This document shows, piece after piece, positions 4,230 through 12,615 of a stretch of DNA of 33,546 nt. Origin of the DNA: an uncultured Clostridia bacterium (GTDB taxonomy: Bacteria > Bacillota > Clostridia > TANB77 > CAG-508); assembly GCA_947625925.1 (NCBI GenBank), contig CANQQC010000005.1, positions 1 through 33,546 on the forward strand, given 5' to 3'. The notes under the pieces are model-generated. The model saw only the letters and a list, made by a program, of their open reading frames with translations. It had not been told where the DNA came from and did not search any database. Made by a program: the position numbers and the translations under genes. Position 1 is the first letter of the stretch. Each line of letters starts with the position of its first letter.

Positions 4230-6041
4230 TTATTCATCATCTAATTTTAATACTGATAAAAATGCTTCTTGTGGTACTTCAACATTACCAATTTCTCGCA
4301 TCTTTTTCTTTCCTCTTTTTTGTTTTTCAAGTAATTTCTTCTTTCTTGTAATATCCCCACCATAACATTTGGCAAGTACGTCTTTTCTCATTGCTGAAAT
4401 TGTTTCTCTAGCAATTATTTTTCCACCAATAACTGCTTGTATAGGAATGGCAAATAGTTTTCTAGGTATCACTGTTTTTAATTTTTCAACCATTTTCTTT
4501 CCTCTATTATAACTACTATCTTTATGAACTATCAAAGATAACGCATCAACTGGTTCTCCATTTATATGAATATCTAATTTTACTAAATCAGATTTTCTGT
4601 ATTCTTTTAGTTCATAATCAAATGAAGCATAACCTTTTGTTTTAGATTTCAAGTTATCAAAAAAATCATAGATAATTTCATTAAGTGGCATTTCATAAAC
4701 AAGTGTAACTCTATTTTCATCTAAGTATTTCATGTCTATATATATACCTCTTCTTCTTTGACATATTTCCATAACATTTCCAACATAATCTTTTGGTGTG
4801 AAAATATTTGCCGTTACATATGGTTCTTCTAAATAACTTATTTCCTGTGGTGTTGGTAAATCTGTTGGATTGTATATATCTAACACTTCACCATCTGTTT
4901 TATGCACTTTATATATAACTGAAGGAGCAGTTGTTATAAGTCCTAAATCAAATTCTCTGTCTAATCTCTCTTCAATTATTTCTAAATGAAGTAATCCTAA
5001 GAAGCCGCATCTAAATCCAAATCCTAATGCTGACGAAGTTTCTTGTTCATATTCTAAAGATGCATCATTTAATTTTAATTTTTCAAGTGCCATTTTTAAG
5101 TTTTCGTACTCACTTCCATCAATAGGATATAGTCCACAATATACCATTGGCGTTACTTTTTTATACCCTTTTAATGGTTTATCAACAGGATTGTCTTTGA
5201 GTGTTACAGTATCTCCAACATGTATATCTGATAATGTCTTTATACTTGCTGCAATATACCCAACTTCTCCTGCTTTTATTTCTTGTGTTGGCATATATGA
5301 TCCAGGTGTAAAATATCCTACTTCTGCTACAGTAAAAGTCTTATTCGTTGCCATTAACTTTATTTCATCTCCAACTTTTACTGTTCCATCTACAACTCTT
5401 ACATATGCAAGAGCTCCTTTATAGTTATCATAATAAGAGTCAAATATTAAACACTTTGTTTTTGCATTTTCATCCCCATTTGGTGCAGGTAAATCTGTTA
5501 CAATTCGTTCTAATACTTCTTCTACATTTAACCCAGATTTTGCTGATATGCATGGTGCATCTTGTGCAGGTATTCCTATTATATCTTCAATCTCTTTTTT
5601 TATCTCATCTGGTCTTGCATTTGGTAAATCTATTTTATTTAATACTGGTAATATTTCTAAGTTATTGTCAATTGCTAAATATACATTCGCTAATGTTTGT
5701 GCTTCTACACCTTGACTACTATCTACTACTAAAACAGCTCCATCACATGCTGCTAAGCTTCTTGATACTTCATAATTAAAATCCACATGACCTGGTGTAT
5801 CAATTAAATTTAATATATATTCTTGTCCATCTTTTGCTTTATATATCATTCTTACAGCTTGTGATTTTATTGTAATACCACGCTCTTTTTCTATTTCCAT
5901 ATTGTCTAAAACTTGACTTTCCATTTCTCTTTTTGAAAGAACTCCAGTCATTTCTATTAGTCTATCTGCTAGTGTTGATTTTCCGTGATCTATATGTGCT
6001 ATTATACTAAAATTTCTTATGTTTTTTTGTCTATCTCTCAT
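4230..6041 (-). CDS. lepA: Elongation factor 4 (LepA)
   Basis: [48 protein letters not shown]-terminal [22 protein letters not shown]. Start set at ATG 6041 (MRDRQKN...) because of an upstream AGGAGG; the listed ORF extends to 6059. Confidence 0.97.
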
Positions 6042-6083: not shown

Positions 6084-6112
6084 ATTATACCTTAAATTTT
6101 GCTTTATTTCAA
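6084..6112 (-). promoter_or_regulatory. Predicted sigma-A-type promoter of lepA (TTGAAA-17-TATAAT), with -10 inside a perfect palindrome
   Basis: Minus strand TTGAAA (6107-6112), 17-nt spacer, TATAAT (6084-6089); -10 lies in the palindrome aaggtataatat-gtaa-atattatacctt (6066-6093). Confidence 0.65.
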
Positions 6113-6120
6113 CTAAGTAA

Positions 6121-6219
6121 TCACTTATTGTTTATTTCTTTTTTTGCTTGTTCTACAATATCATTTAAATTCTCAATTTTTTTTGAAATAACTTCTAGTT
6201 CTTCATCATCTTCCTTCAT
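6121..6219 (-). CDS. Small ORF (32 aa), [32 protein letters not shown], overlapping the 3' end of the giant ORF
   Basis: Not in the supplied ORF list. ATG at 6219 overlaps the last codons of the upstream ORF in another frame; GGAG sits about 6 nt upstream; encodes a charged helix-like peptide ending in TGA. Confidence 0.5.
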
Positions 6220-9200
6220 CTCTTTCTCCATCAGCAACCTCTCCTGTATTAATTTCTTTTTTTGATACTTCCGATAAAACTCTTTCAACCTCATGTGGTG
6301 CTCTTCCTTCAGTTAGTTTCCTATATATAAATTCTGCTTCACTATCTTTATATCCTTCTTGATTTATTATTTTGTTTATTTTTTCTATTGAGTTAATTTC
6401 TCTTAATTGCATAGCACTCTTTATATACTTTTGGGCTATTTCATTTTGTTCAAAAAAAACATTAATATTATCTCCTTCTACTATCTCTCTTAGTCTTTCT
6501 GTATAAAATTCAATCATTTTTATTTTTTCTAAAAATTCTTTAGAATAGTATTTAGGATTATTATTTGCTTCATAACCACCCCTAAAATATTTAGCAATTT
6601 CTAGTACTTCATTATCTTGTATTTTTTCAATTAAATTCGTATATTTATTACCAAATCCTTTTATCATTTTGTCTATTTCATTTTCATTAAATCCCATATC
6701 TTTAGCCATAGCAGTCATATACATTATTTCTATTTTAAGTGTTTCTTTATCTATTTCACTATAATAATCTAAAAAATCAAATTTTCCACCATTTTTCTCT
6801 AATAGTTCATCATATCCTTGAATAACATCTAATATATCATACTGTTCACCTATTTCATTAGAATCTATTTTATCATATGAATATGTATTTTCACCATAGC
6901 TATATTTATTTATCTTTTCACTATAACTTTTTTCTCCATTTAAATCTATATTTAACTTTCTTAATATATTTAACCTTTTCTCGGTAAAGCTTGGTGTATC
7001 TTTATTGCATATCAATTCCTCCATACGATTATACTCTCTAGTTGTGTTTTCTATTTGTTGTTCATCTTCCATATCATTAATTAATTGATTTAAAACATCT
7101 TTTTCTATTTCACTATTATCTTTTGCAACCTTTTCTATCTTTGAAATTATATCTTTAAATTTTTCATCTGTAAATAATTCTTCTACTAAATCAGCTCTAT
7201 TTATATTTTTCAATCCTGATATATTTCCATAAAACTCTTGAATTAGTCCATCTATACATTTTATATTTTTTGTTTTTTCAAATTCTTTTACTTTATTTTC
7301 AATTTTTTCAATTTGTTTTTTAGCATTTTCAGTCACATCTATAATTTTTATAGGTATTTCAAACTCTTTAGCTGCTTTTTTAGCTTCTTCATTAATTTTA
7401 TCTAAACATAAAATATAGTCTGGTTGTCTTTTTTGGTCAGTACCTATAATATTTCTTTCTATAACATTTTCATTATATCTTCTTGTTCTTTTTATTAATG
7501 TTTCAGGATACATACTCATAGCAACTCTCATAGATTTAGTTGAAACTTCGTTGTTAACTGACACCACATCATATGGTCCTTGTTTAGTTAATGAGTATGG
7601 TTCTATATCTTCAAAACCAATTATTACTCCATCTTCTCTATATGCCATACCTAAATTATTCTGTGCAATAAGAGAACAACATATTCCATGATTTTCATTA
7701 TTTTTTTCACTATTCCAACTTTCATTATAATTTTCAGGAATCTCTCCCTGATTTCCATAAGCATTAAGAACGTGTATTAACTGAGGTTTAAAATCATCTA
7801 GTTTATAAACATCTATTTCACTTCCGTCATACTCTAAAACTCCATGAATATCATATTTATCATTTCGTTTTTCTAATAATGTATTCATCTTTTCAGATAA
7901 TATTTTTTTCATTCTATTTTCAAATTTTTCTATCTCTAATCTTGTTATCTCTGGTTCATGTTCTGAAAGTTCATATGCATGTCTAATAATTTTTGCATTT
8001 GAATTCAAAACGTTCCTTAAGGCATTTATATAATTTTCATACTTTTCAGCCTCTTCTGGATTTAAATCTTTGTCTTTTTTCATATCTTCTACTAAAAATG
8101 AATATTGAAAAACTCGTTCAAAAGCCTCTTCATAAGTCAAATTGTAATATCTAGAAAAATAGGCATCTTTTATTCTAATATTTTCAATATTCTCTTTATC
8201 TTTATTTAAAACAGGCATATTTTTAGACATAACATTTAACTTACCATCTGAAGAACCATTTAATAAGTTTTTCATATCAAATAATCTTTTTCTCTCTGAT
8301 ATTAACTTTTTGTATTCGGCTACATCATTTTGAACTTCAACACTTACATATTTTTTATTTTTGTCATACTTCTCCACAAGATAATCAACATTTTTATATC
8401 CTTCTTTTTTTTGTATTTTCTTCTTTAGATTATCAATTTTTTCTATTAAAGTTTGCTCATCCTTTATTATATCATCATAATATTGATTTTTTCGATTTCT
8501 ATATTCTGCTATATTAAATTGATCTATATCTTCTATATCTCCTACAACATTATGATTATAGTTTAATATTACTTCTGTAAAATCTCCAAAACTTACACTT
8601 TCTTTTTGTTCATACATTTTCTCTCGTATATTATCTGGAATACTTGCATATTCATTTAAAAGTTCATCTAAAACATAATTATTGTCCTCAGTTATATCAT
8701 TGAATCCATCTAAGATACATTTTATATTTTCAGCATCATATTTACTTTTAAGATTCTCCATACAATCTTGTGCATTAGGGTATTTCACAATTTTATATAT
8801 ATAATCTTTTCCATATAAATCAATATATTTTTTATCTAATAATTTTAAATTGACAGTTCTAGCTATATCAGGTATTTCTTTTTTCATCTCTTTTAAAACA
8901 TTTATTTTTTCTTCGACATCTTCTTTTTCAACTTTTTCGCTTAAAACATTTTCAAAAAAAGTATCTTTACCTCTTAAATCTAAATCATCCATTAAGTCTG
9001 TAAAAAAATCTTTATCTTCTCTTAATAAATAAGATAAGAAATTATTCTCTTCAATAACTTTTCCGAATTTCTCATTTTTATTTTTACTTTCTTCTATAAA
9101 TTCATCCCACTTATTTTTATCACCTTTTATAAGTATTTCCATAATAGTTTTAACGTCATAATTTTTAACATTTTCGTTATTATCCATTAAATTTGTTGTA

Positions 9201-10783
9201 TCTTCAATTTGATCTATCATAAGTTTATAATAATTGTTAACTAATTCATTACATTTATTTTCTATTTTTGATTCATTTAAACCTCTATCTTTTTGACGTA
9301 CTCTTTCTATATTTGCTTCATAAATTTGAGAATCTTTTAATACTTTTTCTAAATATTCTTTTTCGTGTATTTGCTTATAATAAGTATCTATACCTAAAAT
9401 ATTTTTAAAATTTTCAAAAACCCTATATTTATTACTGTCTTTATCAAATCTATTTGCTATACCATTTATTCCTCTTTCTATTGTTTCGTCTTTTTTCCTT
9501 TCATGTTCATACTCATTAGTGTTTATCCCTTCTAATATAATAATTTTGTCTTCATCACTAATAGTAAAATTTTTTAGTTTGTATAAAATATTATTTAAAT
9601 CTTCACTTCTTTCATCATATTCTTTAATTTTTTCATTTATTATTTGAGAAAAATCAGATTTTTTTTCATAACTATTAATAATCTCTTCTATAATTTCACT
9701 ACTACCTTTATTTTCTGCCATTAAAAATAATTCTCTTTTTTCTTCTATACTTGTCTTTTTTAATTCTTCTTTAACCTTTTCATCTGAAAAAATATTGTTT
9801 ATAAGTATTTCTGGCAAACCTTTTAATACATCAACACTATTATTTTTAAATATATTTAGAAAAACTTTAGACTTATCTTCGTTACTCAACTTACCATAAT
9901 TAGAATAATCTATGTACGTTATAAATCTTCCATCAGACATTAATTGTATTTTTTCTTCTCCATCTTTTACATAATCTATATATTTGTTGATATTTTCAGG
10001 ATTTTCTTTTATTGTCGCTATTACTCTATCATTAAATATTTTTTTATATTCACTTATAAATTTTTGTATTTCAGGTGTTACTTCTTCAGAAAATTTTAAT
10101 ATATTATTTATTTTTTGAATCTTATTACCATATTCTTTCAAACAGCTTTCTTTTTCTAAATTACAGTTTTTATCAAAATCAGTAAATAATCCTTGTTTAA
10201 CTTGAGGTAATTCTAATAATTTTTTTGAACATTCTATAGAAGAATTGTAAAAAATTTCAGAAATTATATAAGTATATTGAGGATCATTTATGTTATCTAT
10301 ACCTTTAAAATAATTTATTAAGTTTTCTTCAGATACTTCTTTTAAAAATTCCACTTTATCTCCAGCACTCAACTCTCTGGTTGATAAATAATCAAGTATA
10401 TTTTTTTCATCTTTTATTTCAGTTTTTATAAAATCCTTTTGTTTTTTTATCTCAACATTTTCTTCTATATATTTAATTTTATTATTTTCATCTTTAATAG
10501 ACTCTAAAACTTTCTTGTCAAATTCATCTTTATCGTATGTTTTTGAAGAGCCTATATCTTTAGCATGAATTGTTTTAAAATTATCATCCTCAATAGACAT
10601 AAGAATTCCTAATACATCTTCTTCTGATAGTCTATATGTACGTCTTTTTTCTATTAGGATTTTTTTCACTTCTTCTGGCAAAACTTTTTTGGATAATCCT
10701 TGTTTATTTCTTTTTGTTTTTTTTACATATTTTTTTGCATAATTTTCATAATAGATATTTTTTATTTTGTCTATCAAACTCAT
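6206..10783 (-). CDS. Giant (1525-aa) uncharacterised intracellular protein, helical/coiled-coil-rich with one compositionally distinct central module
   Basis: Uninterrupted 4.6-kb ORF without signal peptide or transmembrane segments; mostly E/K/N/I-rich helical text. Central segment (about 7310-7800) ...LIHVLNAYGNQGEIP...GICCSLIAQNNLGMAYREDGVIIGFEDI...EVSTKSMRVAMSMYPETLIKRTRRYNENVIER...QPDYILCLDKINEEAKKAAKEFEIPIKIIDV... has globular-domain character. Confidence 0.85.
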   Translation of the reverse strand: MSLIDKIKNIYYENYAKKYVKKTKRNKQGLSKKVLPEEVKKILIEKRRTYRLSEEDVLGILMSIEDDNFKTIHAKDIGSSKTYDKDEFDKKVLESIKDENNKIKYIEENVEIKKQKDFIKTEIKDEKNILDYLSTRELSAGDKVEFLKEVSEENLINYFKGIDNINDPQYTYIISEIFYNSSIECSKKLLELPQVKQGLFTDFDKNCNLEKESCLKEYGNKIQKINNILKFSEEVTPEIQKFISEYKKIFNDRVIATIKENPENINKYIDYVKDGEEKIQLMSDGRFITYIDYSNYGKLSNEDKSKVFLNIFKNNSVDVLKGLPEILINNIFSDEKVKEELKKTSIEEKRELFLMAENKGSSEIIEEIINSYEKKSDFSQIINEKIKEYDERSEDLNNILYKLKNFTISDEDKIIILEGINTNEYEHERKKDETIERGINGIANRFDKDSNKYRVFENFKNILGIDTYYKQIHEKEYLEKVLKDSQIYEANIERVRQKDRGLNESKIENKCNELVNNYYKLMIDQIEDTTNLMDNNENVKNYDVKTIMEILIKGDKNKWDEFIEESKNKNEKFGKVIEENNFLSYLLREDKDFFTDLMDDLDLRGKDTFFENVLSEKVEKEDVEEKINVLKEMKKEIPDIARTVNLKLLDKKYIDLYGKDYIYKIVKYPNAQDCMENLKSKYDAENIKCILDGFNDITEDNNYVLDELLNEYASIPDNIREKMYEQKESVSFGDFTEVILNYNHNVVGDIEDIDQFNIAEYRNRKNQYYDDIIKDEQTLIEKIDNLKKKIQKKEGYKNVDYLVEKYDKNKKYVSVEVQNDVAEYKKLISERKRLFDMKNLLNGSSDGKLNVMSKNMPVLNKDKENIENIRIKDAYFSRYYNLTYEEAFERVFQYSFLVEDMKKDKDLNPEEAEKYENYINALRNVLNSNAKIIRHAYELSEHEPEITRLEIEKFENRMKKILSEKMNTLLEKRNDKYDIHGVLEYDGSEIDVYKLDDFKPQLIHVLNAYGNQGEIPENYNESWNSEKNNENHGICCSLIAQNNLGMAYREDGVIIGFEDIEPYSLTKQGPYDVVSVNNEVSTKSMRVAMSMYPETLIKRTRRYNENVIERNIIGTDQKRQPDYILCLDKINEEAKKAAKEFEIPIKIIDVTENAKKQIEKIENKVKEFEKTKNIKCIDGLIQEFYGNISGLKNINRADLVEELFTDEKFKDIISKIEKVAKDNSEIEKDVLNQLINDMEDEQQIENTTREYNRMEELICNKDTPSFTEKRLNILRKLNIDLNGEKSYSEKINKYSYGENTYSYDKIDSNEIGEQYDILDVIQGYDELLEKNGGKFDFLDYYSEIDKETLKIEIMYMTAMAKDMGFNENEIDKMIKGFGNKYTNLIEKIQDNEVLEIAKYFRGGYEANNNPKYYSKEFLEKIKMIEFYTERLREIVEGDNINVFFEQNEIAQKYIKSAMQLREINSIEKINKIINQEGYKDSEAEFIYRKLTEGRAPHEVERVLSEVSKKEINTGEVADGERDEGR

Positions 10784-10917: not shown

Positions 10918-10979
10918 TTATTAACAAATTTTTCTCCACCAATTACAACATTTTCATAATAAAATACGACAGATTGTCC
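10902..10979 (-). pseudogene. Remnant of an mnmA 3' end
   Basis: Minus-strand translation GQSVVFYYENVVIGGEKFVNKYHIC*, matching the C-terminus of the intact MnmA in this window (GQSAVFYKGDIVIGGGKII*); no upstream coding continuation. Confidence 0.82.
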
Positions 10980-11014
10980 TATTGTCTAAACCTTGACTTT
11001 CCATTTCTCTTTTT
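10980..11014. repeat. 35-nt near-identical direct-repeat copy of an internal lepA segment (5900-5934)
   Basis: tattgtctaaaCcttgactttccatttctcttttt versus lepA tattgtctaaaActtgactttccatttctcttttt; one mismatch, same orientation. Confidence 0.93.
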
Positions 11015-11550: not shown

Positions 11551-11562
11551 TTTATCTCCTTT

Positions 11563-12615
11563 TTAAATAATTTTTCCACCACCAATAACAATATCTCCTT
11601 TATAGAATACTGCTGATTGTCCTGGAGTTATTGCTCTTTGAGGTTCATCAAGTATAACTTTTATATTTTCTCCTTCTTTTACAATTGTTGCTACTACATT
11701 TTTTGATGAATATCTAGTTTTAACATCAACCTTAATTGGTTCTTTTATATCATCAACTAGTAATAAATTTATATCATTTACTAAAAATTCTTTTTTATAT
11801 AATTCTTTTTCTTCTCCAACTATTACTTCATTTTTTTGTTTGTTAAATCCAATTACAAATAACGGAACTTTATATGATATTCCAAGTCCTCTTCTTTGTC
11901 CTATTGTATATCTATATAATCCTTGGTGTCTTCCTAGAACTTCTCCAGAACTTAATACTATATTTCCTTCTTTTGGTTTTAAATCAGAATTATTTTCTAA
12001 GAATTTTTTATAATTTCCATCTGGTACAAAGCAAATGTCTTCACTATCTGGTTTGTTTGCAACTTTCAAATTATTTTCACTTGCTATTTTTCTTACTTCT
12101 TCTTTTGTCTCAAATTCACCTAAAGGAAATAAAATCTTTCCTAATAATTCTTTTGGCATATTATATAACACATAACTTTGATCTTTTGAAAGATTATTTG
12201 CTTTTCTTAATACATATTTTTCATATTCTTTCGAATATTCCATTTTTGCATAATGCCCTGTTGCAATATATTCACAACCAAGTTCTTTTGCTTTTTCATA
12301 CATAGCCCCAAATTTCATATATTTATTACATTCAATACATGGATTTGGTGTCCTTTGATTAGAATATTCCTCAATAAAATTATCAATTACTTTACATCTA
12401 AATTCTTCCTTTTGATTATATGTAATGTGTGGAATTCCTATTGAAGTACATACATTTTTAGCATCAATATATGTTTGAGTATTGCAACAACTACTTCCCG
12501 CAAACAATTCCAAGGTTATTCCAATTACATCATAACCCTGTTTTTTTAATAATAGCGCTGATACAGAACTATCAACTCCTCCACTCATTCCAAGTAATAC
12601 TTTCTTATTTTCCAT
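11563..12615 (-). CDS. mnmA: tRNA-specific 2-thiouridylase
   Basis: LLGMSGGVDSSVSALLL, RTPNPCIECNKYMKFG, ATGHYA, KDQSYVLYN, DSEDICFVPDGNYKKFL, YTIGQRRGLGI, ITPGQSAVFY. Confidence 0.97.
   Translation of the reverse strand: MENKKVLLGMSGGVDSSVSALLLKKQGYDVIGITLELFAGSSCCNTQTYIDAKNVCTSIGIPHITYNQKEEFRCKVIDNFIEEYSNQRTPNPCIECNKYMKFGAMYEKAKELGCEYIATGHYAKMEYSKEYEKYVLRKANNLSKDQSYVLYNMPKELLGKILFPLGEFETKEEVRKIASENNLKVANKPDSEDICFVPDGNYKKFLENNSDLKPKEGNIVLSSGEVLGRHQGLYRYTIGQRRGLGISYKVPLFVIGFNKQKNEVIVGEEKELYKKEFLVNDINLLLVDDIKEPIKVDVKTRYSSKNVVATIVKEGENIKVILDEPQRAITPGQSAVFYKGDIVIGGGKII

What the first reader, a model, noticed from the sequence alone, without database searches (positions are those of the whole stretch)
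6206..10783. 1525-aa uncharacterised cytoplasmic giant protein with a distinct central module
By far the longest ORF, in a region of small housekeeping genes. No signal peptide or TM segment is visible. The flanks read as long helical, E/K/N-rich text with loosely repeated segments (e.g. ...LSTRELSAGDKVEFLKEVSEENLINYFKGI... and ...NYGKLSNEDKSKVFLNIFKNNSVDVLKGL...), consistent with an alpha-solenoid. I cannot assign it to a named family. Size, location and rearranged flank make it the best candidate for an undescribed system (effector-, defence- or scaffold-like; inference).
Basis: partly seen in the sequence, partly recalled or inferred. Interest (0 to 1): 0.65.

Follow-up and report, generated by a model that had tools for sequence, protein, structure and literature searches.

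The report
Orphan giant protein with new effector-like module
A 1,525-residue protein from an uncultured gut Clostridia genome carries a previously uncatalogued ~300-residue module that recurs, usually beside a small partner gene and once at the tail of a type VII-secretion-style giant, so it looks like the working part of an unrecognised family of effector or toxin proteins.

Summary
The ORF is real (minus strand, 1525 aa, no TM segment). Pfam, NCBIfam, PADLOC, PHROGs and PDB sequences give no match. Its core, aa 871-1178, is a conserved alpha/beta module (near-invariant W1023, D1072, E1105, P1121) in about a fifth of sampled genomes of one order of uncultured gut Clostridia; it was not found in sampled class members outside the order, nor in viral contigs, phages or plasmids. 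The module sits at variable positions in proteins of 370-3328 aa. In one 3328-aa protein it is near the C-terminus, behind a WxG-type N-terminus and next to two WXG100-like genes, as in T7SS polymorphic toxins. Of 66 module genes, 40 lie beside a ~150-aa same-strand partner ending in a cationic amphipathic helix (p=1e-25). The partner is in 156/194 genomes and also pairs with unrelated proteins; its subtype follows a C-terminal tag on the cargo, not the module. The window copy is an orphan: no partner, no recognised tag, in a rearranged mnmA-lepA interval where its nearest sequenced relative has no such gene. Best reading: orphan member of a new polymorphic effector-like family. Biochemical activity is unknown; ADP-ribosyltransferase similarity was tested and not confirmed.

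The parts
6206..10783 (-). giant protein P0001, 1525 aa, mostly helical, no TM segment
   Evidence: no family match in Pfam, NCBIfam, PADLOC, PHROGs, PDB
7250..8173 (-). conserved alpha/beta module, aa 871-1178 (near-invariant W1023, D1072, E1105, P1121; H-x-x-C-x-S motif about 1032-1037)
   Evidence: 40-member alignment; AF2 models
7214..8860 (-). aa 642-1190: module plus the helical domain before it, aligned to named MAG loci
   Evidence: alignment A4, AF2 model m3508375b051b
8861..10783 (-). N-terminal helical region, aa 1-641; no relatives detected; no significant periodicity
6206..7249 (-). C-terminal region, aa 1179-1525 and stop; no recognisable C-terminal tag of either type
10980..11014 (-). 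35-nt copy of lepA coding sequence (window 5900-5934), 34/35 identical
10918..10980 (-). degenerate copy of the mnmA 3' end (window 11560-11623), 77% identical; scar upstream of the giant gene

Best explanation
The gene belongs to an undescribed polymorphic effector family of one order of uncultured gut Clostridia. The central module is the working (probably enzymatic) domain; the variable helical flanks act as a scaffold or target-binding part. In typical members a C-terminal tag on the giant is bound by a small partner protein whose cationic amphipathic tail docks the pair at the membrane, for delivery or localisation. The window copy is an orphan member, inserted or left behind at the mnmA-lepA interval, with no adjacent partner and no recognisable tag; it is either decaying or served by partners encoded elsewhere in the genome (four loci). 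Shown: the module family, its distribution, the partner and tag associations, the WXG-type fusion, the scar. Inferred: effector action, tag-partner binding, membrane docking, orphan or decay status. Unknown: the chemical activity and the target.
For: Module in 40/290 genomes (single-sequence query) and 58/280 (profile) of the order, and in no sampled class member outside the order. Three copies in this genome. Module position and protein length vary, 370-3328 aa. The 3328-aa protein of L042 has the module at aa 2895-3226 behind a WxG-type N-terminus, next to two WXG100-like genes (E 1.7e-5 and 0.005, both below Pfam's cut-off). This genome holds a T7SSb EssC fragment (746 bits, cut-off 778, truncated by the contig end) with YukD-like and WxG genes. 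Partner adjacency 40/66 against 46/703, p=1.4e-25. The partner family is far wider than the module (156/194 genomes) and sits beside diverse proteins. A shared C-terminal tag is concentrated at partner loci. In the partner tree, partners of tag-1 module giants group with partners of tag-1 proteins that lack the module (tag label 5 changes against 12.4 in shuffles, 0 of 500 as low). Partner tails: median hydrophobic moment 0.585 against 0.32 for internal segments, median net charge +4. Three other module genes lie beside lepA or mnmA (L062, L069, L064); in G058 a different giant plus partner sits beside lepA; the nearest relative G014 (LepA 95%) has no such gene there.
Against: No toxic or enzymatic activity is shown; no secretion signal in the window protein; no immunity gene identified; the module is internal in most members, whereas polymorphic toxins usually carry the toxin domain at the very C-terminus. 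Only one WXG-type fusion was seen, its genome G074 showed no full EssC, and no module or partner gene lies beside the T7SS loci read. The partner's cargo includes GH10-like, PHP and helicase proteins, which also fits an intracellular housekeeping or scaffold role. The tag was found in the same loci in which it was then counted, so the enrichment is partly circular, and the partner tree has weak deep branches.
Confidence: 0.5

Rival explanations
1. An intracellular scaffold or sorting system: partner and tag tether diverse enzymes, including these giants, at the inner face of the membrane or in an assembly, with no role in conflict.
For: Partner in 80% of genomes, up to 16 copies; cargo includes GH10-like, PHP and helicase proteins with no obvious toxin character; amphipathic tail.
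Against: Module genes are patchy and sometimes frameshifted, one is fused to a WXG-type giant, and some partner-linked proteins look ART-like or effector-like, typical of conflict systems.
Confidence: 0.25
2. Anti-phage or abortive-infection defence: the helical part senses, the module acts on the own cell.
For: Large helical sensor-like flanks plus one conserved putative catalytic module; patchy distribution.
Against: No PADLOC match; defence-island context was not systematically tested and none was noticed; the partner is shared with many unrelated proteins.
Confidence: 0.12
3. The window copy itself is a decaying remnant with no present function.
For: No partner, no tag, a scarred 5' flank, absent from the nearest relative.
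Against: Frame open over 1525 codons with all near-invariant module residues kept.
Confidence: 0.13

Closest known systems
T7SSb LXG/WXG polymorphic toxins with Lap1/Lap2 targeting factors (PMC9600955)
   Same: Modular giants with an exchangeable effector domain; small cognate partner genes beside them; one module giant has a WxG N-terminus and WXG100-like neighbours.
   Different: Most module giants show no WxG N-terminus; the sorting-like tag is C-terminal; the partner has no WXG100 or other Pfam match and ends in an amphipathic helix.
Polymorphic toxin systems in general (PMC3482391)
   Same: Shared trafficking-like element with varying cargo, patchy presence, broken copies.
   Different: Module usually internal; no immunity gene identified; delivery route unknown.
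ADP-ribosyltransferases (CteC 8ux2, PMC10810742; PARP-type)
   Different: The higher-confidence model (pLDDT 88) finds no ART at all; no sequence-profile support; no conserved R-S-E.

Membership tests
T7SSb LXG/WXG polymorphic toxin | N-terminal LXG or WxG secretion domain in the window protein | tested here: not met
   Pfam: no LXG/WXG match; the WxG-type N-terminus was seen only in L042
T7SSb LXG/WXG polymorphic toxin | cognate small targeting factor gene adjacent to the window gene | tested here: not met
   no partner or WXG gene beside the window gene; 40/66 relatives have the ~150-aa partner
T7SSb LXG/WXG polymorphic toxin | T7SS machinery in the genome | tested here: met
   EssC-like fragment on G000:C85, 746 bits over model positions 348-1295, cut by the contig end and so just below the 778-bit cut-off (FtsK-type hits give about 110), with YukD-like and WxG genes
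T7SSb LXG/WXG polymorphic toxin | toxin activity and immunity protein | not testable with these tools
   needs expression experiments
ADP-ribosyltransferase | ART fold | tested here: inconclusive
   CteC weak in one model, absent in the better model; the PARP family gave no usable bacterial members for a profile comparison
ADP-ribosyltransferase | R-S-E or H-Y-E catalytic triad | tested here: inconclusive
   E1105 invariant and a nearby H frequent, but no full triad can be assigned
Known anti-phage defence | match to a PADLOC model | tested here: not met

The most novel reading that the evidence does not exclude
An order of gut Clostridia uses an undescribed delivery or localisation system in which a small amphipathic-tailed adaptor recognises one of several C-terminal tags on otherwise unrelated effector proteins; this giant's module is one of its effector domains, with a fold not matched in the PDB.
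Probability: 0.3. Interest if true: 0.85.

Novelty: new variant of a known kind. Interest (0 to 1): 0.6.

Why it matters
Clostridia of this order are common in animal-gut MAG collections and poorly characterised. A shared adaptor plus C-terminal tags linking many unannotated proteins would give a handle for naming dozens of unknown genes at once, and a confidently predicted module without a PDB match is a good target for structure and activity work.

Tried and rejected
Known-family searches in Pfam, NCBIfam, PDB sequences, PADLOC and PHROGs: nothing above cut-off for the giant, module or partner. ART membership: a weak CteC Foldseek hit was not reproduced by the better model; hhalign of the module profile against the N-terminal part of another, ART-looking giant gave probability 0.8%; the PARP family could not be used as a control. 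Viral or plasmid origin: no relative among viral contigs, phages or plasmids. Solenoid repeats in the window protein: not significant. The first alignment was too diverse for a collection scan and was replaced by a closer subset. Literature searches found no description of this family.

Full report
The observation. The window holds one uninterrupted ORF of 1525 codons at 6206-10783, on the minus strand. The highest 19-residue hydropathy mean is 0.58, far below a TM segment, and E, K, I and N dominate the composition. The flank is rearranged: upstream of the start codon lie a 35-nt copy of lepA and a degenerate ~64-nt copy of the mnmA 3' end.

The module. Whole-protein searches find no Pfam, NCBIfam or PDB match. 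A second gene in the same genome matched aa 864-1183 at 31% identity. With that stretch as query, 40 of 290 genomes of the order match; with a 27-row profile, 58 of 280. Among 291 genomes drawn from the class only three, all of the window's own genus, match. Named relatives are uncultured Clostridia MAGs, some labelled from rabbit, chicken or sheep sources. Forty module sequences align with near-invariant W1023, D1072, E1105 and P1121; the protein has 0.1% tryptophan overall, so the conserved W is notable. No relative was found in viral contigs, phages or plasmids.

Structure. An AF2 model of window aa 642-1190 reaches pLDDT about 80-90 over much of the module; a model of a relative's module alone (L085) reaches pLDDT 88 and pTM 0.85. 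Neither gives a PDB match at E <= 0.001, nor does the second in the viral library. I read the YNE...QPDYI stretch as PARP-like by eye; that is a lead, not a test.

Partner and tags. Of 66 non-redundant module genes, 40 have a ~150-aa gene on the same strand within 700 nt, against 46 of 703 other ORFs of the same loci (p = 1.4e-25). The partner lies about equally often upstream and downstream. Its last residues form a cationic amphipathic segment. The family occurs in 156 of 194 genomes, up to 16 copies, and away from module genes it abuts very different proteins, among them GH10-like, PHP, ResIII/DEAD-helicase and ABC-transporter matches in Pfam; peptidase-like (HExxH) and ART-like readings are mine by eye. 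Many of these proteins end in a shared tag around IGKATINTPT; 16 of 23 tag hits lie within 700 nt of a partner, against 218 of 1607 ORFs overall. Four module giants carry this tag (L041, L043, L044, L075), and their partners group with partners of tagged proteins that lack the module rather than with partners of other module giants (quick tree, deep branches weak). A second tag type (EDLxExYxxVxxxER) ends most module giants of another subgroup, including the G000:C47 copy. This pattern fits a partner that recognises the tag; binding is inferred.

Link to secretion. In L042 the module is near the C-terminus of a 3328-aa protein with a WxG-type N-terminus, next to two genes with WXG100 similarity below Pfam's cut-off, the layout of T7SSb toxins with targeting factors (PMC9600955). 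The window's genome has an EssC-like fragment with YukD-like and WxG genes, but the module gene in the window is not linked to it.

The window locus. LepA of the nearest relative, G014, is 95% identical; there lepA and mnmA are separated only by an unrelated 150-aa ORF, and no module gene was found in that genome. Module genes lie beside lepA or mnmA in three other genomes, and G058 has a partner and a different giant beside lepA, so this interval appears to be used repeatedly. The window copy has neither partner nor recognised tag.

Judgement. That the gene belongs to a real, uncatalogued, order-restricted family is well supported. That it acts as an effector is the most likely reading (0.5); the activity, the delivery route and whether this copy still works are open.

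Noticed in passing
G000:C85 (L184): A T7SSb EssC-like fragment followed by a YukD-like gene and three ~220-aa WxG-motif proteins, in the window's own genome.
   Followed up: partly
L114:7215-10439: A different 1074-aa giant beside lepA with a partner gene; its N-terminal part looks ART-like by eye.
   Followed up: partly
L141: A cluster of several proteins with the same C-terminal tag, two partner genes and an ABC transporter.
   Followed up: partly
L172:5443-7896: Partner-linked protein with a sub-threshold Pfam match to the HopA1 effector family (E 5e-4).
   Followed up: no
window 6110-6205: Past the stop of the giant ORF another frame reads on for about 30 residues; a possible late frameshift or an unrelated short frame.
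   Followed up: no
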